Shown piece by piece: positions 14,081 to 31,544 of a stretch of 64,000 nucleotides of DNA. The stretch's first letter is position 1. Every line of letters starts with the position of its first letter. Source of the DNA: Propionibacteriaceae bacterium (GTDB lineage: Bacteria; Actinomycetota; Actinomycetes; Propionibacteriales; Propionibacteriaceae); contig WQZD01000009.1 in the NCBI GenBank assembly GCA_009780915.1, positions 1-64,000 on the forward strand, given 5' to 3'. The notes beneath the pieces are model-generated. The model was not told where the DNA came from and searched no databases. It saw nothing but the letters and a program-made list of their open reading frames with translations. A program made the translations under genes and the position numbers.

Positions 14081-14488
14081 ACTCGTCCCTTTCCTCAATA
14101 AAACTCATCAACTCGTGACATGACAGCACGGCATGACCTCGGCACATCCCATCGACGCCTACCGCATGGCTGTGATCACCACAAACTCTCCCAGTTTGAT
14201 TCAAATATATTTACGATCTTAACCGAGATGGATAGATCTGTCACCCCCTTAATAGTGCTTGACAACTGGTTATTTTCACCATATGGAGTCGCGGCTTCGG
14301 CAATGATTATAATGTTTGTAATAGTTTCAACTAGCGAAAGGACGCTAGGGCGCCATAGGGGGCACGCCGCCGCACGATGGATGGTCGCGGGCGCGATAGA
14401 TTCAGTTATTGCGAATCATTTCATGCGTCAAGCACCAAGGCGCGCCGGGTGTCCCCCGGGGACACGTGATGCGAGGAAGCCCGTGGAG
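14081..14488. promoter_or_regulatory. 408-bp AT-rich intergenic region upstream of the giant surface-protein gene
   Basis: No gene is supported. About 14190-14340 is far richer in A+T than anything else in the window. On the minus strand TATAAT (14311-14306) with a weak -35 (TAGTTG, 16 bp away) could start a leader of about 220 bases for the surface-protein gene. On the plus strand TTGACA (14259-14264), 17 bp and TATGGA (14282-14287) look like a promoter, but no plus-strand gene follows. A 127-codon plus-strand reading frame here looks random. Confidence 0.45.
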
Positions 14489-15769: not shown

Positions 15770-15795
15770 GCCACCAGCGTACTATGCTTGCCTGC
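15770..15795. promoter_or_regulatory. Compact divergent promoter between the GH1 and DUF885 genes
   Basis: Only 26 bp separate two opposed ATGs. The self-complementary core GTACTA/TAGTAC gives each strand a -10 candidate: plus TATGCT (15783-15788, 7 bases from the ATG) or TACTAT (15780-15785); minus TAGTAC (15784-15779, 9 bases from the ATG). Neither side has a Shine-Dalgarno, so both messages are probably (nearly) leaderless and compete for polymerase. Confidence 0.45.
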
Positions 15796-17469: not shown

Positions 17470-17635
17470 GATCTATGGGAAGTGTGGCGTATGCCTGTGG
17501 GCTGTCGCTGCCGTCGTCATGCCCGCCTCAATGCTGAAGGTGACTGGCATGACACCAACGACCGAGCAAGAAGCCGCAGCTGGATCATCCGACCTGATAT
17601 CATGCCATCTTGCACGTAGGAGGCGCATTCGCTGG

Positions 17636-18004
17636 ATGTTTCGCCGGTGGTGGATAGTCCCCATCATTGGCGTCATGGCAGTGTTCTCTCTTGCCTCATG
17701 CGCTGAACCATCAATGGGACATATCGCTGGCGTCGTCACATGGCAGTCAGGTTCAGTCAGTCCCACACCACAACCAGTGACCACCACGGTGACCGCCATC
17801 CAATCAGGCGCCCATACAGGTCAGACCTGGTCAGTGGACACTGCCAGTGACGGCTCATTCACGCTCGATCTTCCACCCGGAAAGTACGAGGTGACCGCAA
17901 TCGTGCCCCATCAAGAGGGACCAGCCACTCAAAGCCAGCCGCAATCTGTCACGGTCAGAGCGGGCAGAACAACCCGTTCCGACATCAGCTTCTACTTTCC
18001 CTGA
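17636..18004 (+). CDS. Small lipoprotein with a carboxypeptidase-regulatory-like (Ig-type) domain
   Basis: 122 residues from the ATG at 17636. The first 25 form a lipoprotein signal: M-F-R-R-W-W, a hydrophobic core, then lipobox L-A-S-C. The mature part has H-I-A-G-V-V-T and a later D-G-S-F-T-L-D-L-P-P-G-K-Y-E-V-T segment, the hallmark of the carboxypeptidase regulatory-like beta sandwich. AGGAGG lies 12 bases upstream, a long spacing, so an upstream non-ATG start is possible. Its base composition is less GC-rich than its neighbours, which may mean recent arrival. It converges with the GH94 gene; no function can be given. Confidence 0.65.
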   Translation: MFRRWWIVPIIGVMAVFSLASCAEPSMGHIAGVVTWQSGSVSPTPQPVTTTVTAIQSGAHTGQTWSVDTASDGSFTLDLPPGKYEVTAIVPHQEGPATQSQPQSVTVRAGRTTRSDISFYFP

Positions 18005-18045
18005 TAGCCAGTTGCCCGATCCCATTCGCCCCGAATCCAGCAGGA

Positions 18046-20580
18046 TCAGCGGGCTCCCAAGGTGATGCGGACTCGGCAGGTGGCGCCGGCCTCCACCGGT
18101 GGGATCACCGCGTGGGGCCTGGTGCCTGTCGTGGGGTCGACAGCACGCCCGTCGACCTCGATCGAGGACACGCCGGAGCACACATGGTCGGGGTTGAGCA
18201 CCTCGATCTCGTAGGTGGCGCCCCTCCATCGGCGGGTGACGGTGAAGCTCGGCCAGTCCGCGGGCACGCAGGGGTCCACGCACAACCCCGCGCCCGTGGG
18301 ACGCACGCCGAGGATGTGCTTGGTCGCGGCGGTGTACATCCACCCGGCGGTGCCGGTCAGCCACGGGTTCTGAGCCTTGCCATAGAACTCATGGTCGCGT
18401 CCGTAGATGAACTGGGCGTACACGTACGGCTCCGCCCCACGCCGGTCGGCCTGGTCGTTGTCATTGCACGGCGCCATGGCGTCGTAGTACTCCATGGCCC
18501 TGTCTCCACGGCCCAGCATCGTCTCGGCGATGATCGGCCACGCGTTGGGATGGGAGAAGATCGCCCCGTTCTCCTTCACCCCGGGATAGACGCGGGTGAT
18601 GTATCCGATGGAGTCGTCGACCTGGGTGTACGACGGCCAGCACAGGTGAGCCCCGTGGGGGCTGGCGAGATGATCATGCACGGCGTCCATCGAGGAGCGT
18701 CCACGCGCGTCGTCGGCCACCTCGGAGATCACGGCCCACGGCATATGCTCCAAGAAGATCTTCCCCTGCTCGCAGTCCTGGGACCCGATCTTGACCCCGT
18801 TCCGGGTGTAGCCGCGGATGTACCACTGCCCGTCCCACAGCTCGCTGTTGGCCGCCTGCGTCGTCGTGGCGATCATCTGGTCCAGCCGTGTGATGAGAGC
18901 GGGGACGTCGCGCAGACGATCATCCGCGCCCACCGCAGCCGAACCGTCGTCGCCCACAGTGGCCAGCAGGTCCTTGAGGGCGCGGGCGGCCCACACGTGC
19001 AGGAAGGTCACCAGCGAGGTCTGTCCGCCGCCCAGGTTGAGGCAGTCGTTCCAGTCGGCCCGCAACCCCTGGGCGATCCCGTTGTCGCCCACGTGGGCGG
19101 CGGTGAACTCCAGCGCCCGCATCAGGTGGTCGAGCACGTCGGTCGGCTTCGGATCGTGGCCCTCGGCGTAGCCGGCGCCCATGACCGCCGTACGCTCAGC
19201 CATGCTCAGGTCTGAGTCGGCGAAGGGGACCTCGTGCCACAGCAGGGCCGTGTCGCCGGTCTCGACGATGTACTCCACGATGGACGGGATGAGCCACAGA
19301 TGATCGTCGGAGCAGGCGTCCGCCAGGCCGTGGACACGGTCCGTCGACGAGCCCGGCACGACGGTGGGCAGCTTCACGCCCTCGGGGATCTCGGGCCCGT
19401 CCCCGTCGGTCGAGGCCGGGTCGAACAGGTGCAGGCCGTACCCGGGCGACATCTGCCCGCGCAGGAGTTGTTCGATCCGGCTCCTCACCTTGGTGGGGTT
19501 CGTGTGGACGACGCTCATGATGTCCTGCGCCGTGTCGCGATAGCCCAGGCCTGTGCGTCCCCCCACCTCGACGAACGAGGCGAAACGGCTCCACACCACG
19601 CAGGTCTCGGCCTGATACAGGGTCCAGGAGTTGAGAAGGGTGTTCATCGCCTCCGACGGCGTCTCGCAGGAGAAGACCGCCTTCTTGTCAGCCCAGTACT
19701 GGGCCAGATCGGCGATGGCGCGGTCGACGGCGCCAGGCACGGAGAACGTCTCGCGCACGCGACGCCCGGCGTCGCGGTTCCCGTACCCGAGCATGTAGGT
19801 CACCCGCACGCTCTCCCCCGGCGCCAGGCTGACCTGGTGATGCAGGGCGCCGCAATGGTTCTGGGTGGTCGCGGACGAGTCCGAGCATCGGCCCTCGACG
19901 ACGGCGACGGGGTTGGATTCGCTGCGGTAGGCCCCGATGAAGCTGTCGCGCAGCGAGTCGAACCCCTGCGGATCGCGATCGGAGGTGAAGTAGTGGTAGG
20001 TCCACGGCTCGTAGTAGAAATCGGATTCGATGACGCCGTCCGCGTAGCTGGACCCCGACGCGTACAAGGACATCTGGAAGTTCTCATTGTCGATCTGGAT
20101 GCTGTGGAAGGAGAACTCCACGTACCCGAAGAGGCTGAGGCCGCGCGGGGTGTCGCCTGTGTTGGTCAGCGTCACATCCCACAGCTCCACGTCCTCACCC
20201 AGAGGGACGAAGATCCGCTGGCTGGTCGCGATGTCACGGTACGTGGACTCGAAGACCGAGTAGGACAGGCCGTGACGGGTGCGGTAGGCGGCCTGGTCCA
20301 GCGGCTTGCCCACGGGCTGCCAGGACGCCGACCAGTAGTCACCGTCCTCGTCGTCGCGCACGTAGAGGTAGTGTCCGGGCCTGTCGAGCGGAACACCGTT
20401 GGGGCGGAACCGGGTGACCCTGCCATGCTCGGGGGAACGGTAGAAGGCGTAGCCGCCCGCGTTCTGGTTCAGGACCGCGCACCACTTCTCAACACCGATG
20501 TAGTTGATCCACGACGCGGGGAGATCCACCCGGTCGATCACATACTCGTCCGTCTCCCGGTCGAAATAGCCGTACTTCAC
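18046..20580 (-). CDS. GH94 phosphorylase, probably N,N'-diacetylchitobiose phosphorylase
   Basis: 844 residues, full length for GH94. These enzymes split a beta-1,4 disaccharide with phosphate, giving the 1-phosphate of one sugar plus the free second sugar. From M-K-Y-G-Y-F-D to the end it matches the Vibrio chitobiose phosphorylase pattern as I recall it: N-A-G-G-Y (40-44), R-F-R-P-N (57-61), F-G-Y-V-E-F-S-F (151-158), Q-A-E-T-C-V-V-W (323-330), and G-L-R-A-D-W-N-D-C-L-N-L-G-G-G (505-519), which holds the catalytic Asp. Linked GlcNAc kinase, mutase and nagBA genes favour chitobiose over cellobiose. GTG start with AAGGAGA 5 bases upstream. It is the last gene of the operon. Confidence 0.88.
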   Translation of the reverse strand: MKYGYFDRETDEYVIDRVDLPASWINYIGVEKWCAVLNQNAGGYAFYRSPEHGRVTRFRPNGVPLDRPGHYLYVRDDEDGDYWSASWQPVGKPLDQAAYRTRHGLSYSVFESTYRDIATSQRIFVPLGEDVELWDVTLTNTGDTPRGLSLFGYVEFSFHSIQIDNENFQMSLYASGSSYADGVIESDFYYEPWTYHYFTSDRDPQGFDSLRDSFIGAYRSESNPVAVVEGRCSDSSATTQNHCGALHHQVSLAPGESVRVTYMLGYGNRDAGRRVRETFSVPGAVDRAIADLAQYWADKKAVFSCETPSEAMNTLLNSWTLYQAETCVVWSRFASFVEVGGRTGLGYRDTAQDIMSVVHTNPTKVRSRIEQLLRGQMSPGYGLHLFDPASTDGDGPEIPEGVKLPTVVPGSSTDRVHGLADACSDDHLWLIPSIVEYIVETGDTALLWHEVPFADSDLSMAERTAVMGAGYAEGHDPKPTDVLDHLMRALEFTAAHVGDNGIAQGLRADWNDCLNLGGGQTSLVTFLHVWAARALKDLLATVGDDGSAAVGADDRLRDVPALITRLDQMIATTTQAANSELWDGQWYIRGYTRNGVKIGSQDCEQGKIFLEHMPWAVISEVADDARGRSSMDAVHDHLASPHGAHLCWPSYTQVDDSIGYITRVYPGVKENGAIFSHPNAWPIIAETMLGRGDRAMEYYDAMAPCNDNDQADRRGAEPYVYAQFIYGRDHEFYGKAQNPWLTGTAGWMYTAATKHILGVRPTGAGLCVDPCVPADWPSFTVTRRWRGATYEIEVLNPDHVCSGVSSIEVDGRAVDPTTGTRPHAVIPPVEAGATCRVRITLGAR

Positions 20581-20647
20581 CTGTTCTCCTTGTCACAGTC
20601 GTGTCTGATTCGTGTCACGCGTTCGCGTGTGTGGGGGGACGTACGGG

Positions 20648-22813
20648 TCACGCGCCAGCGAAACCCTTCACCCAGGACACCAGCTCGTCGGCGCGCTCGT
20701 GCGTCGCCGCCTCGGCGACCATGCGCAGGACCGGTTCCGTCCCGGAGAAGCGCAGAAGCACCCAGGAGCCGTCGACCAGACGGATCTTGATCCCGTCACC
20801 GGTGTCGATACGGTCGACGTCGACTCCGGCGATCTGGGTCGGCGCGGCCGCCGTCATCCGCCGGGGCACCTCCACCTTCATGGCCGGGGTCGCGGGCACG
20901 CCGATCTCGATCTGGGTCGCGCGCCCGGTGATGGCGAAGACGTCGTCGAGCAATTGCGTCAGGCTCTTGCCGGTCGCGGCCAGCATCTCGCAGACGAGGG
21001 CGCAGGCGAAGATCCCGTCCTTGCCCAGGATCCATCCACGGATGGTGAGCCCGCCTGAGGACTCTCCTCCCAGGACGGCGTCGATCTTCTCCATGCCCGC
21101 GGTGACGTGCTTGAAGCCGACGGGCACTTCCAGGGACTCCTCCCCGAAATGGGCCGCCAGGTGGTCCAGCATGTGCGTCGTGGCGAGGTTGCGCACCACG
21201 CCGCCTCTCAGACCGCGCACCTCATGGAGATACCAGTAGATGAGCACCAGGAGTTCGTTGGTCGAGACGTACCGGCCGTTCTCGTCGAGGATGCCGATAC
21301 GGTCGGAGTCTCCGTCGGTGGCCATGCCCAAGTCGTAGCCCCCCGCCTTGACCATGGTCATCAGCGTCGACAAGGACTCGGGGTCGGGCGCCGGGGAGTG
21401 CCCGCCGAACAGGGGATTGTGCCGCTCGTGGATGAACTCGGCGCGCACCCGGGCGTCGGAGAGGACCATGCCCAAGGTCAGCTGGCTCGTGCCGTACATC
21501 GGATCGATCGCCACACGCAACGGCTTGGCCGCCCGCATGGCGGCGATGTCGACCATCTCTTCGAGCGCTTCCACGTAGGTGTTGGTCAGGTCGATTTCCA
21601 TGGCCATGGTGACCTGGATGGCGGTGGCATAGTCCAACGCCACCACATCAGCCTGGGTGAGGCGGTTGGCCTGGGTCTCGTAGCGCTTCGTCTCATCGTC
21701 CAAGGGCAGGGAACCGTCGGCCCGGAAGACCTTCAGCCCGTTCCACTGCGGCGGGTTGTGCGAGGCGGTGAAGACCAGCCCGTAGGCGCATCGCAACTGA
21801 GGGGCGGCGAAGGTCACCAGAGGGGTCGGCACGTCCCCCTCGAGGACGAACACGGGGATATTGTTCCCGGCGAAGACCTCGGTGGCGGCCTGGACGGACT
21901 CCGCCGACAAGAAGCGCCGGTCCCCACCGATGACCACGCCTTGGCGTTCCCGACCCGAGACGGTGACCTCGTTGGCGATGGCCTGGCACAGCCGGCGGAC
22001 GTTGTGGATGGTGAACCCCTCACCGATCTTGGCTCTCCACCCGCCCGTGCCGAAGGAGATCTCCGCGGTCTCGATCGCGTGGATCGGGGCGAAGAGACGC
22101 TTGAGGACGATGTCGGCGGCCAGGGCCAGCTCGGCGTCGCTGTTGATCCCCTGCACCTCGTCCACGTCGAGGATGGCGTACGAGGCGACCGTACGGCCCT
22201 GCGCGATCAGGCGTTCCGCCAACTCGGTGAGGCGGTGCTCGCCTGTGGCGGCCATCTCGTCCAACTGGGGGATGAGGATGGAGGAGTCGATGATGTACGC
22301 GCCGACGTTGACCTCCTTGATCGCCGAGGACTCGTTCGACAAGTCGCTCGCCTCCTGGATCTCGGTGATCCGGCCCTCCTCGTCACGCAGGATCCGGCCC
22401 ATGTCCCCGGCGTCGGGAACGATGGCGGTGAGCAGGGAGAAGTCCGCGCCCTTGAGCTCGTGCTTCCATCGCAGTCCCCGCAGGGAGGAGGCCCGCAACA
22501 TCGGCGTGTCCGCGTACGCCACCAGGACGTCGCCGTCGAAACCCTCCAACTCGAAGCGGGCGCACCGCACGGCGTCGCCTGTCCCAGCCTGGACGGTCTG
22601 GACGACGTAGGTCCACGAGTCGCCCAGCAGGTCGCGCACCTGGTCGTCGTGCTCGTCGACCACGATGATCACGTCAGACGCGGGGACGACGGCCGTGACG
22701 TTCGCCAAGCACTGCTCGACGACCGTCGAGGCAGCCAGGCGGCTCAACAGCAGATCCCGGGTCGCCTGGTCGTGACCGGCGGCGAGCAGGACTGCTTTGC
22801 AGGGGCGTGTCAT
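20648..22813 (-). CDS. Fusion of a GlmU-like nucleotidyltransferase domain and a phosphohexomutase (putative phospho-N-acetylglucosamine mutase)
   Basis: 721 residues from the ATG at 22813, which overlaps the kinase stop by four bases. Residues 1 to about 240 resemble the UDP-GlcNAc pyrophosphorylase half of GlmU: Q-A-G-T-G-D-A (75-81), A-D-T-P (101-104), G-R-I-L-R-D (139-144) and E-V-N-V-G (167-171). The signature nucleotide loop is broken, however: L-A-A-G is followed by H-D-Q-A-T-R-D, not G-x-G-T-R-M-x-P-K. Residues about 250-721 are a full alpha-D-phosphohexomutase: T-A-S-H-N-P (349-354, phosphoserine), D-G-D-S-D-R (500-505, metal), G-G-E-S-S-G-G (582-588, sugar) and R-F-S-G-T-E-P (688-694, phosphate). 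In this operon the mutase would convert GlcNAc-1-P from the GH94 enzyme to GlcNAc-6-P. The N-domain may bind substrate, regulate, or divert GlcNAc-1-P to UDP-GlcNAc. Confidence 0.85.
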   Translation of the reverse strand: MTRPCKAVLLAAGHDQATRDLLLSRLAASTVVEQCLANVTAVVPASDVIIVVDEHDDQVRDLLGDSWTYVVQTVQAGTGDAVRCARFELEGFDGDVLVAYADTPMLRASSLRGLRWKHELKGADFSLLTAIVPDAGDMGRILRDEEGRITEIQEASDLSNESSAIKEVNVGAYIIDSSILIPQLDEMAATGEHRLTELAERLIAQGRTVASYAILDVDEVQGINSDAELALAADIVLKRLFAPIHAIETAEISFGTGGWRAKIGEGFTIHNVRRLCQAIANEVTVSGRERQGVVIGGDRRFLSAESVQAATEVFAGNNIPVFVLEGDVPTPLVTFAAPQLRCAYGLVFTASHNPPQWNGLKVFRADGSLPLDDETKRYETQANRLTQADVVALDYATAIQVTMAMEIDLTNTYVEALEEMVDIAAMRAAKPLRVAIDPMYGTSQLTLGMVLSDARVRAEFIHERHNPLFGGHSPAPDPESLSTLMTMVKAGGYDLGMATDGDSDRIGILDENGRYVSTNELLVLIYWYLHEVRGLRGGVVRNLATTHMLDHLAAHFGEESLEVPVGFKHVTAGMEKIDAVLGGESSGGLTIRGWILGKDGIFACALVCEMLAATGKSLTQLLDDVFAITGRATQIEIGVPATPAMKVEVPRRMTAAAPTQIAGVDVDRIDTGDGIKIRLVDGSWVLLRFSGTEPVLRMVAEAATHERADELVSWVKGFAGA

Positions 22814-23712
22814 AGCTTGTAACCTTCCGTCCAACCCTGCCCGATCAACGCGGCGCCGATGGCGGGCGCCTGGATGTCGTCAGGCAAGGTGATGATCTGA
22901 TCGGCGATGCTCGCATAGTCGGGGAATGCCACCCTCTCCCCGCGTTCGACCAGGGTCGCCTTCACCGCGGGGATGAGCCACGGCGCAGCCTGGACGACTC
23001 CCCCGCCCAGGACGATGTGGTCGGACGCGTAGGCCACCGCCACGAGGGCGACGACACGAGCCATCACCCGCACACTCTGCTCGAGAGCCGCACGACCGAC
23101 CGGAGTGGTCGTGAGGTCCAATCGCGTCCAGTCCAAGTCGAGCATGTCCATGCGAGGGGCGAGATACGCGCCGCCCAGGATGGTCTCGATGCAGCCTCGT
23201 TGCCCACAGCGGCACGGATCCCCGCTCGGGTCGAGGACGATATGGCCGATCTCGCCGGCCACATTGTCCCTGCCGCGGATGAGACGGCCAGCCAAGGTGG
23301 CCGAGGCCACGCCAGTGCCGAAGTTGACGTAGGTCACAGACAAGGATTTCAGCAGCATCCCGGCTGCCACCACCGTGGCCTTGACGTCGTTGTCGACTCG
23401 GATCGGGACCGAGAACTCGTCGGCGATCAGCTGGCGAAGCGGCATGTGCTCGATGTCGAGATTGACGGCCGACGCGATCTCGCCCTTCGCACGGTCGACC
23501 ACCCCGGGGATCCCGATCCCCACACCGTCGAAGTCCCTCAGACCCACGCCGAGTTTGTCCGCCACGGACGAGGCGATCCCCATGAGCACCGACCGTACCC
23601 CCTCGGAGCCTCGGCGCGTGAAGGCCGCCGCTTCGGCCACGATCTGGTTGTTCTCGTCGAGGGCGACCCCATGGGCCTTGGTCGCTCCGATGTCGATTCC
23701 CAAACTCAGCAT
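22810..23712 (-). CDS. ROK family sugar kinase, probably N-acetylglucosamine kinase
   Basis: 300 residues. The ROK fold is shown by D-I-G-A-T-K (7-12, ATP site), V-D-N-D (106-109, catalytic Asp109), E-I-G-H (154-157) and the zinc motif C-x-C-G-x-x-G-C-x-E (167-175). There is no DNA-binding N-terminus, so it is a kinase rather than a repressor. It would phosphorylate the free GlcNAc released by chitobiose phosphorolysis to GlcNAc-6-P, the NagA substrate. It lies 29 bp after a permease gene and overlaps the mutase start (ATGA). A glucokinase role cannot be excluded from sequence. Confidence 0.85.
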   Translation of the reverse strand: MLSLGIDIGATKAHGVALDENNQIVAEAAAFTRRGSEGVRSVLMGIASSVADKLGVGLRDFDGVGIGIPGVVDRAKGEIASAVNLDIEHMPLRQLIADEFSVPIRVDNDVKATVVAAGMLLKSLSVTYVNFGTGVASATLAGRLIRGRDNVAGEIGHIVLDPSGDPCRCGQRGCIETILGGAYLAPRMDMLDLDWTRLDLTTTPVGRAALEQSVRVMARVVALVAVAYASDHIVLGGGVVQAAPWLIPAVKATLVERGERVAFPDYASIADQIITLPDDIQAPAIGAALIGQGWTEGYKL

Positions 23713-23741
23713 GGACGTTCCCTTTCTTGTGGTCGGACTGC

Positions 23742-24611
23742 TCAGCCTTTGACTGCTCCTGCCACCAGACCTGAGGTGAGGCGGCCTTGGACGATGAGGA
23801 AGAAGATGATCACGGGGACGGCGACCAAGGTGGACGCAGCCATCACCTGGCCCCAGTCGGTCTCACGCGCCTGGCTGGCTTGGATGAAGCCACGCAGCCA
23901 CAGGGGCAGGGTACGCATGTCCTCTTTCGGCAGGATCACCAAAGCGATGGTGAACTCGTTCCACGCTTGGAGGAAGGCGTACACGCCGGAGGCGACCAGG
24001 CCGGGCGCGAGGAGGGGGAACGTGATGCGGAAGAACGCCGACACCGAGGAGCAGCCGTCCACTTTGGCGGACTCCTCCAGTTCGGCGGGGATGCCCGCCA
24101 CGAATCCTCGCAGCATCCAGATGGTGAACGGGATGACGGCGGCGATATAGAGCACCGAGATGCCGATGACGGTATTGAGCATGCCCACCGTGCTCACCAT
24201 CTTGTACTGCGCGATGAACAGGCCTTCGGCGGGGAGCATCTGGATGAAGAGGATGGCCAAGACGAAGGAACGGCGTCCGCGGAACTTGAAGCGGGAGATC
24301 GCCAGAGCCGCGAGGAAGGCGAAGATGATCGCGCAGACGACCGCGATCAGGGTGACCTGCAGGGAGATCCCCAACGCTCGCAGGAATCCCGACGACATGA
24401 CGCCCTCGTAATTGTCCAGGCTGCCGCCGAAGGGGAAGAAGCGAGGCTTGGTGGAGGTCAGGACGACGTTGGGCAGCAGCGAGCTGGAGACCATCCAGTA
24501 CACGGGGAAAACCCAGACGAGGGCCACGACGATGGCGACGATCGAGAGCAGCACCCGGGAGATCCGGATGCGTCGACGCGGGGACCGTGTCGGCACGGCG
24601 AGGGTGGTCAT
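23742..24611 (-). CDS. ABC sugar transporter permease, MalG type
   Basis: 289 residues with six hydrophobic segments, an N-terminal basic stretch and the cytoplasmic EAA loop (E-E-S-A-K-V-D-G-C, about 184-192, then F-P-L-L-A-P) that contacts the ATPase. It belongs to the CUT1 oligosaccharide importer family. Its ATG overlaps the stop of the preceding permease gene by four bases, so the pair should be made in equal amounts. No ATPase gene is found in the operon. Probable substrate: chitobiose or GlcNAc, by context. Confidence 0.88.
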   Translation of the reverse strand: MTTLAVPTRSPRRRIRISRVLLSIVAIVVALVWVFPVYWMVSSSLLPNVVLTSTKPRFFPFGGSLDNYEGVMSSGFLRALGISLQVTLIAVVCAIIFAFLAALAISRFKFRGRRSFVLAILFIQMLPAEGLFIAQYKMVSTVGMLNTVIGISVLYIAAVIPFTIWMLRGFVAGIPAELEESAKVDGCSSVSAFFRITFPLLAPGLVASGVYAFLQAWNEFTIALVILPKEDMRTLPLWLRGFIQASQARETDWGQVMAASTLVAVPVIIFFLIVQGRLTSGLVAGAVKG

Positions 24612-25540
24612 GAGTCCTCCTTGATCAGTTGGAGCACATACGCGATGGAGAAGATGATCGTGATGATCAGGACGAAGATGGACAAGGCGGAGGCCATGGC
24701 GAAGTCGCCGGAGCCCACGCCGAGGCGATAGATGTACGTGCCCAACAAGTCAGAGTTGAGCGGCATCTGCGCGTCTTGGAGCATCTTGATCTGGGTGAAC
24801 ACCCGCAGGTCCCAGATGATCTGGAGCAGGCCGACGATCATCAGGACCGGGCGGATCATGGGGACGATGATGGAGACGAACCGCCTCGTGGCGCTGGCGC
24901 CGTCGAGGCTGGCGGCCTCCATGACCTCCTCGGAGACCTGGGTCAGGCCAGCGAAGACGGAGAAGGCGACGAAGGGCACCGACATCCACACCACGATCAC
25001 GGTGGCGACGAAGTACAGGCCCATGGACGTGCCGAGCCAGTTGAAGCTGGAGAAGTTGAGCCCGAGGTGGGTCAGGATGTAGTTGATGACGCCGCGACGC
25101 CAGTCGAAGAGCCAGATCCACACGGTGACGACGGCCACGACGGGCATGGCCCAGGCCAGCAACAGGCAGATCTGGAGGATGAGGCGGACGGCTTTGCTGA
25201 CGGCGTTCATCAGCAGGGCCAAGGCGATGCCGACCACGAGGGTCAGGGCGGCGTTGGCGACGCAGAAGATGAGGGAGCGGGCGACGACTCCCCAGGTCGT
25301 CTTGTTCGTGAAGACAGAGATGTAGTTTTCCAGGCCGACGAAATCGGGCGGCGCCCCGAACTGCTGTCGCAGTCCGAACTTCATGAACGACGCCCAGATC
25401 TGCCAACCGAGGGGGTACCCCATGGCGACGAGGAGCATGATCGACGCGGGAAGAATCAGGATGTACGGCGTCACGTGCGTCTTCCGTTTGACGCCCTTCG
25501 TTGTGTCGCTCTTGGGGGTTGTGGCATCCGTGGATGTCAT
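24608..25540 (-). CDS. ABC sugar transporter permease, MalF type
   Basis: 310 residues, CUT1 family, with about six membrane segments starting near residue 25 (Y-I-L-I-L-P-A-S-I-M-L). The EAA loop reads E-A-A-S-L-D-G-A-S-A-T-R. I chose the ATG at 25540, which has AAGGAGGAG 5 bases upstream; the longer in-frame extension is Arg/Pro-rich non-coding sequence. A strong hairpin lies between this gene and the upstream binding-protein gene, probably to hold permease expression below that of the binding protein. Confidence 0.88.
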   Translation of the reverse strand: MTSTDATTPKSDTTKGVKRKTHVTPYILILPASIMLLVAMGYPLGWQIWASFMKFGLRQQFGAPPDFVGLENYISVFTNKTTWGVVARSLIFCVANAALTLVVGIALALLMNAVSKAVRLILQICLLLAWAMPVVAVVTVWIWLFDWRRGVINYILTHLGLNFSSFNWLGTSMGLYFVATVIVVWMSVPFVAFSVFAGLTQVSEEVMEAASLDGASATRRFVSIIVPMIRPVLMIVGLLQIIWDLRVFTQIKMLQDAQMPLNSDLLGTYIYRLGVGSGDFAMASALSIFVLIITIIFSIAYVLQLIKEDS

Positions 25541-25669
25541 ACGACTCCTCCTTTCATGGGGGATGAGGGTCTCAGGGCCATACTGCCCCTGACACGGGGC
25601 CTGGCGACCAGAGACGGGACGGGCGGGTGTCGCGGCCCGAGGCGCACGACTGGGACTGTGCGGGTGTCC

Positions 25670-25704
25670 CCGGTGGGAGGAACCTGGACGGCTCCTCCCA
25701 CCGG
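25670..25704 (-). terminator. Intercistronic 12-bp perfect hairpin between binding protein and permease genes
   Basis: CCGGTGGGAGGA (25670-25681) pairs perfectly with TCCTCCCACCGG (25693-25704) across an 11-base loop, beginning 6 bp after the binding-protein stop. There is no U tract. In sugar ABC operons such stems stabilise the upstream message or cause partial termination. Confidence 0.65.
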
Positions 25705-25710
25705 ACGACA

Positions 25711-27063
25711 TCACTTCTGGTTCAGCATCGGCGTGATGATATCATCGTATTCCTTCGCCAGGGACACGATGTCACCGCCGTCGGCGACCTTCTGGAAGAA
25801 CTCCTCGAGCTTGCCGGAGGCTTCGACGCCCGCCCAGCCGGGGGCTGCGGGGGTCAGCTTGGAGTTGGAGGCGGAGTCGATGAGAGCCTTGGCGAACTCG
25901 TCGCTGCCCAACGAGGAGACGTAGTCGCTGTTGGCCGGGCCGAGGCCGTTCTGGCCGAGCATCGTCTGGTATTCGGCTGAGAAGATGATCTCCATCAGCT
26001 GGCGGGCGCCGGCCTGGTTGGAGGACTTCGCGGAGATGCCGATGTTCGAGCCGCCGGCGAAGACCGGGGCGGGCTTGCCGTCGTTGCCGGGCAGCGGGAA
26101 GACACCGAAGGTGTCATCGTTCCAGGTGCGCACGTCCTTGCCGGTCGTGGCGTCCTTGGTCAGGTCGCCGATGGACCAGTGGGCCCAACCCGGGGCCATG
26201 ATCGTGGCGGCGGCCAGCGACGTGGAATCCGTGACGTTGCCGTTGGCGTCGGTGACGGAGTCGGAGTCATTGATGTACAGCCACGGGCTCTGGTCCTTGG
26301 CCGTCGAGGGGGCCTTGGAGGCCTTCATCTGGATGTCCTGGAGCTGGGTCAGACCCGCGATGGAGTTGGGGTCGGAGAAGGTCGAGGTCCATGTGCCGTC
26401 GGCGCCCTGCTTGGCGAGGTCACCACCGTTGGCGAAGATCCACGAGATGCCGTTGCGCCAATCCTGGCCGCCGAGGAAGAAGCCCGAGAAATCGTTGATC
26501 GCGTCGGGGTTGTTCTCCGTGATGGTCACGACGTCCTTGTTGAAGTCGGCCAGAGTCGCCGGAGGAGCGGTCACGCCAGCGGCGGCCCACACGTCCTTGC
26601 GGTAGAACATGTAGCGCGAGCCGAAGTAGTAGGGAAGGGTGTAGTTCTTCCCGTCCACCTTGCCGACGTCGACGAAGGACTGGAGGAGCTTGTCCCCGCC
26701 CAGCGTGGAGTACATGTCCGAGATGTCGGCGAAGGCCCCGACGTTGGTGAAGGTCGGCGACTGCGTGTTGCCGATCTCCGTCACGTCAGGAGTGTTGGCC
26801 GCATCGGGCAGCATCGTGGTGAGCTTGGTGATGATGTCACCCCAGGTCTGCTCCTCGATGGTCAAGGTGCCCCCGTTGACCTTCTTGTACTCGTCCACCA
26901 GGTAATCACGCAAGGGCTGCGGCGTGTCATTGCCGATCAGCCAGAAGGTGATGTTCTGGGCTCCGGTGGTGGTGGTCGAAGGGGTGGGCGTACCCGCGGC
27001 ACAACCAGTCAGGGTCAGCGCTGCTGCCAACCCCAGCGCCACGGCTGCGATCTTTCCTTTCAT
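25711..27063 (-). CDS. Sugar-binding lipoprotein of an ABC importer (probable chitobiose/GlcNAc binding)
   Basis: 450 residues with a lipoprotein signal peptide and lipobox L-T-G-C (Cys21), then a Thr/Pro/Ser-rich tether. The mature part is a family 1 extracellular solute-binding protein: I-T-F-W-L near 38, then L-P-Y-Y-F-G-S-R-Y-M-F-Y and G-G-S-N-I-G-I. It would capture sugar outside the membrane and deliver it to the two permeases. AAAGGA lies 6 bases upstream of the ATG. It starts 39 bp after the repressor gene with no clear promoter between, so it is probably co-transcribed with it. The substrate is inferred from context only. Confidence 0.87.
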   Translation of the reverse strand: MKGKIAAVALGLAAALTLTGCAAGTPTPSTTTTGAQNITFWLIGNDTPQPLRDYLVDEYKKVNGGTLTIEEQTWGDIITKLTTMLPDAANTPDVTEIGNTQSPTFTNVGAFADISDMYSTLGGDKLLQSFVDVGKVDGKNYTLPYYFGSRYMFYRKDVWAAAGVTAPPATLADFNKDVVTITENNPDAINDFSGFFLGGQDWRNGISWIFANGGDLAKQGADGTWTSTFSDPNSIAGLTQLQDIQMKASKAPSTAKDQSPWLYINDSDSVTDANGNVTDSTSLAAATIMAPGWAHWSIGDLTKDATTGKDVRTWNDDTFGVFPLPGNDGKPAPVFAGGSNIGISAKSSNQAGARQLMEIIFSAEYQTMLGQNGLGPANSDYVSSLGSDEFAKALIDSASNSKLTPAAPGWAGVEASGKLEEFFQKVADGGDIVSLAKEYDDIITPMLNQK

Positions 27064-27102
27064 CTTTTTCCTTTTCTTTGTGTTGTGGAGGATGGGTGGC
27101 CC

Positions 27103-28239
27103 CTATGACACACCCAAGGTTGTTCTCATGACAAGCGACACAGCGCCCAAAAGGACCGCTTCGCCGCCGAGTGATGACTGTCTCATCGTGAACTCCTGGC
27201 GGAACTGGGAGCGTGTGCGCTCCACGATGAGGTCCTGACAGGCACGGATGAAGACGGAGTCGATCAAATCTTCGGGACCGCCCACGACGACCTCGGTCAG
27301 GTCGAGGGCGGCGACGATGGGGGCCAACGCCATCCCCAGGCGTCGTCCGGCTTCGGCGAGCACATCCTCGCGTCGGGCCGACTCATGGCTCAGACGTCGC
27401 TGCAGCGCGGGAGCGGAGATCCATGTCTCCACGCAGCCCCGTTTGCCGCACGAGCACATCGCGCCCTGATGCTCGATGACCACGTGTCCGATCTCTCCGG
27501 CGGCGGCCGCCGTGCCCAGGACCAAGGACCCCGACAGCAGGATGCCGGCTCCGACCCCGCGAGAGATCTGGACCCTCACCAGGGTGGGGCCGGCTTCGCT
27601 GAAAGCCGTCTCCGCGATCACGGCCGCGTTAGCGTCGTTCTGGATCACGGTGGTCACCTGGAGACGTTCCGCGAGGATGTCCTGGAGGTCGACCCCGTAC
27701 CAGTCGAAGTTGGGGGCCGCGATGACGGTCCCTTGCGTGTCGACCGTCCCCGGGGTCCCCACACCCACGCCGAGAATCGGTCGCGTGGCCAAGCTCGCGC
27801 ACCGCTCGGCCAACTCCAGCACGGCGTCGACGGCCTCCGGCCCGGTGCGCCCGTCGAGGTCGAGGCTGACACGAGCACGGTTCTCGCCTCGCATCGAGTA
27901 GATCCCCGCCCGGAGGACGTCGGGGGCGGACAGGTCGAGGGCCATGATGTCGCAGGTGTCGTCGCGCACGGCCAGGGTCGCGGCAGGTTTGCCGGGACGG
28001 GCGCCCGACGTCATGCCCGTCTCGGCGACCAGTCCTTCGTCGATCAGTTCGGCGACCAGATCCGAGATGGTGACTTTGGTCAGCCCCGTCAGACGGGCCA
28101 GATCGGCCCGTGTCAGTTGGGGATCGTCGTAGAGGGATTGCAGCACGAGGGAAAGGTTCGACCGTCGCCCGTCATGGGGGCGCAAGGTCCGGGACCCGTT
28201 CTGATCCTCGTAGAAGCCGAGAGGCCGCGCTGCCGTCAT
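27103..28239 (-). CDS. ROK family transcriptional repressor (NagC/XylR-like)
   Basis: 378 residues. Residues about 25-75 form a winged helix-turn-helix (R-A-D-L-A-R-L-T-G-L-T-K-V-T-I-S-D-L-V), followed by a ROK sugar-binding domain with the zinc motif C-S-C-G-K-R-G-C-V-E (about 265-274). The kinase-type ATP site is altered. It most likely represses the chitobiose operon and responds to a GlcNAc-derived ligand. Its ATG lies only 5 bases from a TTAGTAA-acc-TTACGAA element, so it should repress itself. It heads the operon and faces nagBA across 324 bp, so it could control both. Confidence 0.87.
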   Translation of the reverse strand: MTAARPLGFYEDQNGSRTLRPHDGRRSNLSLVLQSLYDDPQLTRADLARLTGLTKVTISDLVAELIDEGLVAETGMTSGARPGKPAATLAVRDDTCDIMALDLSAPDVLRAGIYSMRGENRARVSLDLDGRTGPEAVDAVLELAERCASLATRPILGVGVGTPGTVDTQGTVIAAPNFDWYGVDLQDILAERLQVTTVIQNDANAAVIAETAFSEAGPTLVRVQISRGVGAGILLSGSLVLGTAAAAGEIGHVVIEHQGAMCSCGKRGCVETWISAPALQRRLSHESARREDVLAEAGRRLGMALAPIVAALDLTEVVVGGPEDLIDSVFIRACQDLIVERTRSQFRQEFTMRQSSLGGEAVLLGAVSLVMRTTLGVS

Positions 28240-28563
28240 AGAAGTTAGTAAACCTTACGAACTAGTAAAAGTCAAGTGGAATCCCGGATCGACGCGCCCC
28301 TCCCGCTGTGCATCGAAAATGTGAAATTGCTTGCGGATCTACGTTTCGTCCTGAGTGTGAGCCGAGAGGGCATGAGTGATGATTCATATCAGTGCCAGTG
28401 AGTCTGGGGACGCCCCCCCTGTCGACCTCAGTACGCGACGCGCGCCCGTGCCGCCCCGCCCACCACCGCGGGAGGGGATCGACTCCTCCGGCGTGTCGTC
28501 CCCAATCCTGGGTAGAGTGAATCGTGTCAATCCCAGTGCGGACCATTCCCCGGAAGGACGGCC
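28240..28563. promoter_or_regulatory. 324-bp divergent control region between the ROK repressor operon and nagBA
   Basis: No gene is supported here. The repressor side is AT-rich and holds the repeat element described separately, with TTTACT (28252-28247, minus) 7 bases before the repressor ATG. On the nagB side TAGAGT (28513-28518) is a -10 candidate with no good -35, giving a leader of about 40 bases that contains GGAAGGA just before the nagB ATG. Confidence 0.5.
28245..28270. promoter_or_regulatory. Candidate ROK operator
   Basis: TTAGTAA-acc-TTACGAA (28245-28261) is an inverted repeat with one mismatch per 7-base arm. A second half-site CTAGTAA (28262-28268) repeats the motif 17 bp from the first. 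The element covers the repressor's own -10 region, as expected for an autoregulated ROK repressor. Confidence 0.5.
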
Positions 28564-29355
28564 ATGGAAGTCATCATCTGCCCCACCCCCGCGCGAGTCG
28601 GCGAGATCGGCGCGGCCAAGATCGCCCAGATCGCCGCCGGACTTCGCTCCGACCTCGTCTTGGGCGTCGCCACAGGCTCGTCCCCCCTGGCGACCTACGC
28701 CGAACTGGCTCGGTTGGTCGACGCCGGCGCCCTGGATGTCAGCAACGCCTCGGCCTTCGCCCTGGACGAGTACGTCGGCATCCCGGTCGACCACCCGCTC
28801 AGCTACCATGACACGATCCGACGCACCGTCGCCGAGCCCCTGCACATGGATCTTGCCCGCGTCCACGTGCCCGACGGCAGCGTGGAGCACCTGTCGACAG
28901 CCGGACAACGCTATGAAGACGCGATCCGCGCCGCGGGCGGGGTGGACATCCAGATCCTCGGCATCGGCACGAATGGGCATGTCGGATTCAATGAGCCGAC
29001 GAGTTCCCTGGCCTCGCGTACCCGGATGAAGACCCTGGCCCCCAGCACCCGCGCGGACAACGCCCGCTTCTTCTCCAGCATCGACGAGGTGCCCCACCAC
29101 TGCATCACTCAGGGGTTGGGAACCATCATGGACGCCCGTTCCGTGGTCCTCGTGGCGACCGGCGCCTCCAAGGCCCAGGCCATCGCCGCCGTGGTCGAGG
29201 GCCCCGTGACGGCCATGTGGCCCGGGTCGATCCTGCAGATGCATCCGCACGCGACCATCGTCGTCGACGAGGACGCCGCCTCGGCGCTGTCCCTCAAGGA
29301 CTACTACAAGAAGGTGTACGCGGACCTTCCCGATTGGCAGAGATTGGACGTGTGA
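28564..29355 (+). CDS. nagB: Glucosamine-6-phosphate deaminase
   Basis: 263 residues, normal for NagB. It converts glucosamine-6-P to fructose-6-P plus ammonia. Visible motifs: G-V-A-T-G-S-S-P (34-41, phosphate loop), L-D-E-Y (67-70, Asp68 catalytic), and G-I-G-T-N-G-H-V-G-F-N-E-P (133-145) with His139 and Glu144; the Asn in place of the E. coli Asp is usual in Gram-positive NagB. GGAAGGA lies 6 bases upstream of the ATG. The stop overlaps the nagA start by one base (TGATG), so the pair is coupled. Confidence 0.95.
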   Translation: MEVIICPTPARVGEIGAAKIAQIAAGLRSDLVLGVATGSSPLATYAELARLVDAGALDVSNASAFALDEYVGIPVDHPLSYHDTIRRTVAEPLHMDLARVHVPDGSVEHLSTAGQRYEDAIRAAGGVDIQILGIGTNGHVGFNEPTSSLASRTRMKTLAPSTRADNARFFSSIDEVPHHCITQGLGTIMDARSVVLVATGASKAQAIAAVVEGPVTAMWPGSILQMHPHATIVVDEDAASALSLKDYYKKVYADLPDWQRLDV

Positions 29356-30497
29356 TGACCCTCATCTTCGCCGAGCGCCTGCTCAGCCCACGCGGGCTGG
29401 TCGGCCCTGGCTGGGTCACAGTGGAGGGCGCGTCGATCGCGGCGTGGGGCGAGGGATCGGCATGGGGCGACGCCTGTCCTCAGTCGGCGCCCGATGTGAC
29501 GGTGGACGGCATCCTCTCCCCTGGTTTCGTGGACGTGCACTCTCATGGAGGGGGCGGAGCGAACTTCGGCGCCGACCCCGCCCAGGCAGCCACCGTCCTG
29601 GACACCCATGCCGCCCACGGCACGACCACCATGGTGGCGTCTCTGGTGACCGGCGCCGTGGACGACCTGGAGGCGCAGGCACGCCTGCTGTCGACCTTCG
29701 TCGCCGAGGGCCGTCTGGCGGGCATCCACCTGGAAGGCCCGTGGCTGGCGCCATCGCACAAAGGCGCCCACCCCGAAGACAAGCTGATCGATCCCAAGAT
29801 CGAGGACATCGCCCGCCTGCTCGACGCCAGCGGGGACACGGTACGGATGGTCACCATGGCGCCGGAGCTGCCGGGGGCCGCCGAGGCCATCCGCTTCCTG
29901 TGCGGCCGTGGAGTCACCGTGGCCGTCGGCCACACCGGCGCCGACTTCGCCACCGCGGCCCGCGCGATCGACGACGGGGCCCGGGGCGCGACCCACCTGT
30001 TCAACGCCATGCCCGAGATCCTGCACCGCGACCCCGGGCCCGCCCTGGCCCTGTGGCGCGACTCCCGCGTCTGGTTGGAACTCATCTGCGACGGGGTCCA
30101 TGTCGACCCCCACCTCATCCGCCACGTGATGACCACCACCCCCCATCGTGTGGTCCTGGTGAGCGACGCGATGGCCGCCGCCGGCGTCGCCGACGGGGAC
30201 TACACGCTGGGCGAACTCGCCGTGGAGGTACGACAAGGAGTGGCCCATGTCGCGGGCACCTCCACCATCGCCGGATCGACCCTCACCCTCGACCGGGCCC
30301 TGCGCACGGCCGTCGCCGCGGGCGTGGACCTCACCACCGCCTTGCGCGCGGTGACCTCGCACCCCGCAGCGTACATGGGACTGGAATCGGTGGGATCCAT
30401 CGAGCCGGGCCACGACGCCGACCTGGTCTGCCTCACCGACGACCTCCACGTGTCCCGAGTCATGCGCCGGGGACAGTGGCTGTCGACGAGCGCGTGA
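29355..30497 (+). CDS. nagA: N-acetylglucosamine-6-phosphate deacetylase
   Basis: 380 residues from the ATG at 29355 that overlaps the nagB stop. It removes acetate from GlcNAc-6-P, giving GlcN-6-P for NagB. Amidohydrolase fold with H-S-H (62-64), Glu127 in H-L-E-G-P-W, His193 in V-G-H-T-G, His214 in T-H-L-F-N-A-M and catalytic Asp271 in V-S-D-A-M. All sites needed for a zinc deacetylase are present. The released acetate could be handled by the ackA-pta pair further along the window. Confidence 0.95.
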   Translation: MTLIFAERLLSPRGLVGPGWVTVEGASIAAWGEGSAWGDACPQSAPDVTVDGILSPGFVDVHSHGGGGANFGADPAQAATVLDTHAAHGTTTMVASLVTGAVDDLEAQARLLSTFVAEGRLAGIHLEGPWLAPSHKGAHPEDKLIDPKIEDIARLLDASGDTVRMVTMAPELPGAAEAIRFLCGRGVTVAVGHTGADFATAARAIDDGARGATHLFNAMPEILHRDPGPALALWRDSRVWLELICDGVHVDPHLIRHVMTTTPHRVVLVSDAMAAAGVADGDYTLGELAVEVRQGVAHVAGTSTIAGSTLTLDRALRTAVAAGVDLTTALRAVTSHPAAYMGLESVGSIEPGHDADLVCLTDDLHVSRVMRRGQWLSTSA

Positions 30498-30512
30498 CCC
30501 GTCGAGGCGCCC

Positions 30513-31544
30513 TCAGGCGAGGGTCACCATCACGATCCCCACGATGAGAGGCGCCGCGCTCAGGACGAGGCAGACCACCGTGAAGGTGAGGGAGTCGCGC
30601 AGGATGGCCACGAACTCCCGGATCGTGGCCGCAGGCCAGTAATACCCGGCCGTCCGGGACCCCAGAGCGTACCCCGGGATGTTCTCGCGCCGCAGCAACA
30701 AAGCCGCTCGGAAGGCGTGGAAGTTGTTGGTGACGGCGACGACTCGGGCGTCGATCCCCTCCCGGGCCAGCATGGCCTTGGTGTTGACCACATTCTCGGC
30801 CGTGGTGCGCGAGAGGTCTTCCATCAGGATGCTCGCGGAAGGCACCCCCTTGTCGACGAGGTATTCCGCCATCGCCGACGCTTCGGAGCGAGCCTCATCC
30901 GAACCCTGACCCCCCGACACGACGAACATCGGCTCGGCGGACGGGGCGTCCTTGCCCCGCGCGAGGGCGCGCGACGCGACAGCCAGGCCCTTGTCGAGAC
31001 GGCTGGCCAGCAAGGGGGTGACCTTGCCGTCGATCAGCCCCGACCCGAGGACCATCACCACGCCGGCGGGCTTGGACCAGCGCACCAGGACGTGCAGGTA
31101 GAGGAAGGAGTACAGCAGGTAGGCGGAGAAGGCGAAGCCCAGATAGGCCAGCGGGACGCCCCCGAAGAGGATGAGCGCGAAGATCTGCGGATTCTCGGTG
31201 ACGATCGCGCCGACCGACACGCCCATGTACCCCAGCATGACCAGCCCCAGGAAGAGCCCCAACAGATTGGCCAGGCTGCGGCCCTCCCGACGCACCATGG
31301 TGAAGGCGTTCAGGACGAGGACCACCCCCAACACGACGATGACGAGGGCCACCACGAGCACGAAGCCCACCGCGAGGTACCCGCCGATGTAGTGGGCAGG
31401 GTCCATCAGGAACAGCACCTCCAGCCCCGCCCAGGCCAGGCACAGGATCGCGGCCAGCAGGAAGACCCCGCACCGGAACCGCCGAGGTTCCCTGACCACC
31501 GAGATCACGAAGCACACCGTGAAGAAGCAGCCGAGAATCCACAT
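30513..31544 (-). CDS. YdcF/ElyC-family (DUF218) integral membrane protein
   Basis: 343 residues: five or so hydrophobic segments in the first 155, then a DUF218 domain (about 165-300) beginning V-V-M-V-L-G-S-G-L and containing V-S-G-G-Q-G-S-D-E-A-R-S-E-A and L-E-D-L-S-R-T-T-A-E-N, and a last membrane helix at the C-terminus. The fold binds nucleotides; relatives affect envelope synthesis, but the reaction is not known. TAGGCT ends 6 bases before the ATG. It follows the flavin-reductase gene by 9 bp and converges on nagA. Confidence 0.85.
   Translation of the reverse strand: MWILGCFFTVCFVISVVREPRRFRCGVFLLAAILCLAWAGLEVLFLMDPAHYIGGYLAVGFVLVVALVIVVLGVVLVLNAFTMVRREGRSLANLLGLFLGLVMLGYMGVSVGAIVTENPQIFALILFGGVPLAYLGFAFSAYLLYSFLYLHVLVRWSKPAGVVMVLGSGLIDGKVTPLLASRLDKGLAVASRALARGKDAPSAEPMFVVSGGQGSDEARSEASAMAEYLVDKGVPSASILMEDLSRTTAENVVNTKAMLAREGIDARVVAVTNNFHAFRAALLLRRENIPGYALGSRTAGYYWPAATIREFVAILRDSLTFTVVCLVLSAAPLIVGIVMVTLA

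What the first reader, a model, noticed from the sequence alone, without database searches (positions are those of the whole stretch)
18046..30497. Complete phosphorolytic chitobiose pathway in one divergent locus
The sequence shows a GH94 phosphorylase of chitobiose type, a ROK kinase, a phosphohexomutase, sugar importer genes, a ROK repressor and divergent nagB-nagA. Together these cover every cytosolic step from N,N'-diacetylchitobiose to fructose-6-phosphate, saving one ATP per disaccharide. Four-base overlaps (ATGA) tie permease to permease and kinase to mutase. GH94 chitobiose phosphorylases are best known from Vibrio, so a full actinobacterial pathway with its own regulator would be worth describing.
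Basis: partly seen in the sequence, partly recalled or inferred. Interest (0 to 1): 0.7.

Follow-up and report, generated by a model that had tools for sequence, protein, structure and literature searches.

The report
Chitobiose phosphorolysis operon with pseudo-GlmU mutase
A bacterium of the propionibacterium family carries one gene cluster that takes up the chitin disaccharide chitobiose and splits it with phosphate instead of water; the cluster's sugar-phosphate mutase is unexpectedly fused to a dead copy of a cell-wall precursor enzyme that probably still binds, and may sense, the same sugar phosphate.

Summary
In nine genes the locus encodes nagB-nagA on one strand and, divergently, a ROK repressor, a three-gene ABC importer (no ATPase of its own), a ROK kinase, a phosphohexomutase and a GH94 enzyme. 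The GH94 protein is of chitobiose type: 971 bits to Vibrio chitobiose phosphorylase against 478 to cellobiose phosphorylase, chitobiose-type residues at the diagnostic positions, and the matching place in a tree. The stated refutation criterion is not met. The same gene order recurs in related Propionibacteriaceae. A palindrome overlapping the putative promoter of the ROK-led operon, single-copy in the genome, is the likely operator.

The 'phosphohexomutase' is a fusion: residues 11-250 are a GlmU uridyltransferase fold, residues 255-728 the mutase. In all 31 fusions compared (Actinobacteria, Chloroflexi, one Alphaproteobacterium) the catalytic loop of GlmU is destroyed (K25 lost 31/31, R18 lost 30/31), yet the uridine, GlcNAc and metal residues remain and one position became an invariant arginine. 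Nearly all sit next to chitobiose phosphorylase. I propose a non-catalytic ligand-binding domain at the branch point GlcNAc-1-P to UDP-GlcNAc or GlcNAc-6-P. No function was measured.

The parts
28564..29355 (+). nagB, glucosamine-6-phosphate deaminase
   Evidence: NCBIfam NF001684 374 bits (cut-off 326) and TIGR00502 252 bits (cut-off 237)
29355..30497 (+). nagA, N-acetylglucosamine-6-phosphate deacetylase; TGATG overlap with nagB
   Evidence: TIGR00221 224.7 bits (cut-off 225.65); sequence
28243..28263 (-). putative operator AGTTCGTAAGGTTTACTAACT (consensus AGTTNGTAARGTTTACTAACT, a perfect 10+10 palindrome in locus L117), 3 bp upstream of the ROK start
   Evidence: conserved upstream of ROK homologues in relatives; only place in the 2.78-Mb genome within 3 mismatches of the pattern
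28247..28275 (-). putative promoter TTGACT-17 bp-TTTACT whose -10 lies inside the operator; the start would fall at about the ROK ATG (leaderless mRNA)
   Evidence: sequence; inference only, the strict promoter scan does not list it
27103..28239 (-). ROK-family repressor (winged HTH + ROK domain), first gene of the operon
   Evidence: Pfam ROK 144 bits, MarR_2/HTH_24 at residues 31-72
25711..27063 (-). extracellular solute-binding protein (lipoprotein-like start) of a sugar ABC importer
   Evidence: Pfam SBP_bac_8/SBP_bac_1; closest solved relatives unspecific
24608..25714 (-). ABC permease 1 (true start probably ATG 25540)
   Evidence: BPD_transp_1
23742..24611 (-). ABC permease 2, ATGA overlap with permease 1
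   Evidence: BPD_transp_1
22810..23712 (-). ROK-family sugar kinase, inferred N-acetylglucosamine kinase
   Evidence: Pfam ROK 138 bits; zinc motif CxCGxxGCxE
22085..22804 (-). N-terminal part of the fusion: pseudo-uridyltransferase (GlmU-like) domain, residues 11-250
20648..22813 (-). whole fusion gene; residues 255-728 are an alpha-D-phosphohexomutase with intact motifs TASHNPP, DGDSDR, GESSGG, RFSGTEP (mechanical ORF start TTG 22834; residue numbers count from there)
18046..20580 (-). GH94 N,N'-diacetylchitobiose phosphorylase
   Evidence: Pfam GH94 domains 484 + 257 bits; 971 bits to 1v7v; residues and tree

Best explanation
The locus is an inducible import-and-phosphorolysis pathway for N,N'-diacetylchitobiose. 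The ABC importer (with a shared ATPase encoded elsewhere) brings in the disaccharide. GH94 cleaves it with phosphate to GlcNAc and alpha-GlcNAc-1-phosphate. The ROK kinase makes GlcNAc-6-P from GlcNAc, the mutase half of the fusion converts GlcNAc-1-P to GlcNAc-6-P, and NagA and NagB lead to fructose-6-P, at one ATP less per disaccharide than hydrolysis. The ROK protein represses its own operon at a palindrome that overlaps the putative promoter. The GlmU-like half of the mutase no longer makes UDP-GlcNAc; it most likely serves as a non-catalytic binding site for GlcNAc-1-P or UDP-GlcNAc that tunes the mutase where GlcNAc-1-P can go either to cell wall (through the separate GlmU) or to catabolism. 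Shown by sequence: gene content, chitobiose type of GH94, the fusion, loss of the catalytic loop with retention of ligand residues, conserved operator. Inferred: transported substrate, kinase substrate, repression, and any sensing. The confidence given is for the pathway plus a non-catalytic GlmU-like domain; the sensing role alone I put at about 0.4.
For: GH94: 971 bits to V. proteolyticus ChBP vs 478 to CBP; R333, R343, R349, D350, W490, D492, V631, E637, H644, Q690, T709, G710 (Vp numbering) all kept, with V631 Tyr and R343 Gly in CBP in this alignment; window groups with VpChBP against CBP. Gene order conserved in relatives. In 197 family genomes, chitobiose-type GH94 is in 24 and the fusion in 24 (26 with fragments); 22 have both. 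The fusion also adjoins GH94 in Sanguibacter, Cellulosimicrobium, Cellulomonas, Chloroflexi and an alphaproteobacterial MAG, while Lachnospiraceae, Vibrio and others have a single-domain mutase there. Pseudo-GlmU: K25 lost 31/31, R18 30/31, G16, T17, M19 and S21 lost; Q76, G81, T82, D105, G140, N169, N227 kept 31/31, E154 29/31; Y197 to Arg 31/31. The predicted model matches GlmU at Z 31, rmsd 1.9 over 239 residues, and phosphomannomutase 1tuo at Z 31.7. The genome has its own normal GlmU (548 bits) and GlmM (562 bits). Operator. Precedent: GMPPA, a non-catalytic paralogue that binds GDP-mannose and regulates GMPPB (abstract of PMC11228364).
Against: No activity, binding or expression data. 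Kinase and binding protein are not assigned to GlcNAc by sequence. The coupling of fusion and GH94 is not absolute: G494 (a complete genome) and G471 have the fusion without a detected chitobiose-type GH94, and G571 and G572 have GH94 without a detected fusion. The GlmU-like half diverges faster than the mutase half at long range (39-44% vs 57-60%), so its constraint is weaker there. The genome has no GH18 chitinase, so chitobiose would have to come from other organisms.
Confidence: 0.7

Rival explanations
1. The GlmU-like domain is only a structural or oligomerisation module inherited from a fused GlmU, without ligand binding.
For: Catalytic loop destroyed; faster divergence of this half at long range; close single-domain mutases do without it beside GH94.
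Against: Residues for uridine, GlcNAc and metal are invariant in 31 sequences across three phyla, including N169, D105, N227, Q76 and G81. A mere scaffold would not need them.
Confidence: 0.22
2. The domain is still a nucleotidyltransferase with rearranged catalytic residues (the new invariant Arg201 replacing R18/K25), so the fusion is bifunctional and sends GlcNAc-1-P to UDP-GlcNAc or GlcNAc-6-P by itself.
For: Metal ligands D105/N227 and the nucleotide pocket residues kept; a new invariant Arg at the GlmU Y197 position.
Against: The NTP loop GxGTRMxSxxPK is gone in all 31, with a 3-residue deletion in the actinobacterial ones; K25 is replaced by Leu, Ile or Met. A normal GlmU exists elsewhere in the genome.
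Confidence: 0.1
3. The locus handles another beta-1,4-linked GlcNAc disaccharide (peptidoglycan- or glycoprotein-derived) rather than chitin-derived chitobiose.
For: No GH18 chitinase in the genome; one GH20; binding protein specificity unknown.
Against: The GH94 protein has all checked ligand residues of ChBP; nothing for MurNAc breakdown was seen among the genes of the locus.
Confidence: 0.1
4. The GH94 protein is a cellobiose phosphorylase and the locus a cellobiose utilisation operon.
For: Same GH family; relatives carry a second, cellobiose-type GH94.
Against: Bit scores, diagnostic residues and tree; a nagBA neighbourhood would be pointless.
Confidence: 0.02

Closest known systems
Vibrio chitobiose phosphorylase (V. 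furnissii ChbP, V. proteolyticus VpChBP, PDB 1V7V-1V7X)
   Same: GH94 enzyme with the same ligand residues; a mutase of the same superfamily next to it in Vibrio loci
   Different: Vibrio has a single-domain mutase; no GlmU-like domain
Ignavibacterium album chitobiose phosphorylase IALB_1006 (characterised, listed in PMC8950772)
   Same: same GH94 subfamily; an Ignavibacteriales relative falls in the chitobiose clade
   Different: no mutase homologue beside the related Ignavibacteriales GH94 within the stretch held
Streptomyces DasABC-DasD (PMC12370203)
   Same: actinobacterial ABC import of chitobiose; no ATPase gene in the operon (the ATPase point from own knowledge)
   Different: DasD hydrolyses chitobiose to two GlcNAc, and the regulator is DasR; here GH94 phosphorolysis and a ROK regulator
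GlmU N-terminal uridyltransferase domain
   Same: fold (Z 31), uridine, GlcNAc and metal residues
   Different: NTP loop and catalytic Lys/Arg lost; fused to a mutase instead of an acetyltransferase
GMPPA, non-catalytic paralogue of GDP-mannose pyrophosphorylase (PMC11228364)
   Same: dead sugar-nucleotide pyrophosphorylase domain as a ligand-binding regulator (analogy of working)
   Different: separate subunit regulating a pyrophosphorylase, not fused to a mutase; membership is not claimed

Membership tests
GH94 chitobiose phosphorylase | GH94 catalytic and supersandwich domains, full length | tested here: met
   484 and 257 bits, both over cut-off
GH94 chitobiose phosphorylase | catalytic acid Asp492 and subsite -1 residues | tested here: met
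   D512, R348, D349, W510, E670 in the window
GH94 chitobiose phosphorylase | groups with characterised ChBP, not CBP; Val631 instead of the CBP Tyr | tested here: met
   tree, V664 in window, 971 vs 478 bits
GH94 chitobiose phosphorylase | phosphorolysis of (GlcNAc)2 | not testable with these tools
   needs assay
GlmU uridyltransferase | GxGTRMxSxxPK nucleotide loop with Arg18 and Lys25 | tested here: not met
   lost in all fusions compared; an R aligns at R18 in only 1 of 31 rows, K25 in none
GlmU uridyltransferase | fold and sugar/uridine/metal residues | tested here: met
   Z 31 over 239 residues
alpha-D-phosphohexomutase | active-site Ser loop, DGDxDR metal loop, sugar loop GE-SGG, phosphate loop SGTEP | tested here: met
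   all four present in the window; conserved in nearly all fusions
alpha-D-phosphohexomutase | preference for GlcNAc-1-P | not testable with these tools
   substrate inferred from the GH94 neighbourhood
ROK repressor | winged HTH plus ROK domain | tested here: met
   a palindrome lies at its own promoter region, binding itself untested
N-acetylglucosamine kinase (NagK, ROK) | passes a GlcNAc-kinase-specific model | tested here: not met
   46 bits against cut-off 380; it is a ROK kinase of unassigned sugar, GlcNAc by context
Carbohydrate ABC importer | binding protein and two permeases; ATPase | tested here: met
   a MalK-type ATPase lies elsewhere in the genome, its pairing is inferred

The most novel reading that the evidence does not exclude
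The fusion is a new kind of metabolic valve: a catalytically dead GlmU domain, fused to the mutase that competes with real GlmU for GlcNAc-1-P, senses UDP-GlcNAc (or GlcNAc-1-P) and sets how much of the sugar released from chitobiose goes to the cell wall and how much to energy.
Probability: 0.38. Interest if true: 0.72.

Novelty: new variant of a known kind. Interest (0 to 1): 0.55.

Why it matters
Chitobiose phosphorolysis makes GlcNAc-1-P, which hydrolytic chitobiose catabolism does not make and which is the direct substrate of UDP-GlcNAc synthesis. A dead GlmU domain, kept in three phyla with its ligand residues and almost always beside chitobiose phosphorylase, suggests that cells need to manage this branch point, and gives a concrete, testable case of a pyrophosphorylase pseudoenzyme acting in catabolism. 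Automatic annotation as a mutase or as GlmU-like would hide both the pathway and the fusion.

Tried and rejected
Cellobiose phosphorylase identity: rejected on score, residues and tree. PDB 8BOU, titled N,N'-diacetylchitobiose phosphorylase, is no counter-example: it is the Blautia beta-glucan enzyme BpGH94MLG. Gene calls around GH94 in Cellulosimicrobium and Chloroflexi by length gave ORFs without Pfam matches and were dropped. The sigma-70 scan found nothing in 17400-30800; the promoter was read by eye next to the conserved operator. Ligand specificity of the binding protein could not be inferred from solved relatives. Literature searches for the fusion found no description among the held open-access papers; subscription papers are not covered.
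Full report
What is there. The window lies in a 2.78-Mb draft genome (G000, 99.4% complete). Matching contigs of congeneric and confamilial species are titled Propionibacteriaceae (the G491 contig and the record of L025 agree in length, 107022). The operon on the minus strand runs ROK repressor, binding protein, permease, permease, ROK kinase, mutase, GH94; nagB and nagA run the other way. The ATGA overlaps are real.

Is it more than chance? The order nagB-nagA / ROK-SBP-permease-permease-kinase-fusion-GH94 recurs in L106 and L117, in L108 and L107 as far as their contigs reach, and with kinase or nag genes moved in L119 and L120. GH94 plus importer without kinase and mutase occurs in G571, so importer and phosphorylase can travel as a unit without the fusion.

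GH94 type. Best solved match is V. proteolyticus chitobiose phosphorylase at 971 bits over the whole length; cellobiose phosphorylases reach 478. As a control, a cellobiose-type GH94 from the same class scores 1592 bits to 2cqs and 473 to 1v7v. All checked ligand residues of VpChBP are kept, including Val631 and Arg343, which are Tyr and Gly in the cellobiose enzymes in this alignment. In a tree of 93 sequences the window sits in a propionibacterial clade inside the chitobiose group, with the cellobiose enzymes as outgroup. It is the only GH94 in this genome, and it is rare around it: of 395 genomes of the class only the window's own has the chitobiose type, against 24 of 197 in the family.

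The fusion. NCBIfam and Pfam see two proteins in the mutase gene: a GlmU uridyltransferase (residues 9-250) and a phosphohexomutase (260-722). AlphaFold2 with 17 aligned fusions gives a confident model (pLDDT 83.6); residues 11-250 superpose on GlmU (Z 31, rmsd 1.9, 239 residues) and 255-728 on phosphomannomutase 1tuo (Z 31.7). The residues that contact uridine (Ala13, Gly14, Gln76, Gly81 in E. coli numbering; the Mtb equivalents Ala14, Gly15, Gln83, Gly88 are named in PMC9105790), GlcNAc (Gly140, Glu154, Asn169) and metal (Asp105, Asn227) stay; the roles of the GlcNAc and metal residues are from own knowledge of GlmU. Tyr197 has become an invariant Arg. The Chloroflexi and alphaproteobacterial copies keep the loop length but still lack Lys25, so the loss is not a side effect of the actinobacterial deletion. 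The mutase half keeps all four catalytic motifs.

Distribution. The fusion adjoins GH94 in Propionibacteriaceae, Sanguibacter, Cellulosimicrobium, Cellulomonas, three Chloroflexi MAGs and one alphaproteobacterial MAG; Lachnospiraceae, Vibrio and related loci have a single-domain mutase of about 480 residues instead. A search with the GlmU-like half alone in 396 actinobacterial genomes found no other copy; the next best matches were 119 bits against 508 for itself and, where inspected, nearly all carried the normal GlmU signature. In the family sample 22 genomes have both genes, two have only the fusion (plus two with fragments) and two only GH94. The organism has separate, normal GlmU and GlmM, so the fusion is not needed for cell-wall precursors.

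Regulation. Directly upstream of the ROK gene lies a 21-bp palindrome, perfect in L117 and conserved in the relatives that have this ROK gene, weakest in L119. In the whole genome it is the only place within three mismatches. A TTGACT-17-TTTACT promoter would put the -10 inside the palindrome and the transcription start at the ATG; this is reading by eye and was not found by the strict scan. No second copy lies near nagB.

Mechanism proposed. Import, phosphorolysis, phosphorylation of GlcNAc, conversion of GlcNAc-1-P to GlcNAc-6-P, then NagA and NagB. The ATP saving follows from stoichiometry. The pseudo-GlmU half is proposed as a ligand-binding regulatory domain at the GlcNAc-1-P branch point; GMPPA is the nearest working analogy (PMC11228364). 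This part is inference. The genome lacks GH18 chitinases but has one GH20, so the organism probably lives on chitobiose released by others; the record names of the relatives resemble gut metagenome bins, but the habitat was not checked.

Known and new. Chitobiose phosphorylases are characterised from Vibrio and Ignavibacterium (PMC8950772); the studied actinobacterial route, Streptomyces DasABC-DasD, hydrolyses chitobiose (PMC12370203). A complete phosphorolytic locus in Propionibacteriaceae is a new member of a known kind; the pseudo-GlmU/mutase fusion makes it a new variant. I found no description of the fusion in the papers held.

Noticed in passing
window 22232-22234 (Arg201 of the 728-residue fusion): Position of GlmU Tyr197 is an invariant arginine in all 31 fusions; it may bind a phosphate and hints at a changed ligand.
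   Followed up: partly
L115/L149 (G494:C160): A fusion gene in a 100% complete genome without GH94 detected; it follows a phosphofructokinase gene instead.
   Followed up: partly
L148 (G571:C3:2486-8472): SBP-permease-permease-GH94 without kinase or mutase beside it, GH94 71% identical to the window's.
   Followed up: partly
window 6875-14098 (-): 2407-residue ORF with signal-like start and many repeated Ig-like stretches, probably a surface adhesin of invasin type.
   Followed up: no
window 14489-15769 (-): 426-residue ORF that reads like a GH1 family glycosidase (GINYYTRSW, ITENG), close to GH94.
   Followed up: no
window 15748-17469 (+): 573-residue ORF with HEGVPGHHLQ, like DUF885 peptidase-type proteins.
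   Followed up: no
L046: A Cellulomonadaceae MAG has a diverged chitobiose-type GH94 (53%) without a mutase nearby but with NagA.
   Followed up: no
G435, G413, G514, G519, G528 and others: Relatives carry a second GH94 of about 36-39% identity, probably cellobiose type; the window's genome does not.
   Followed up: no
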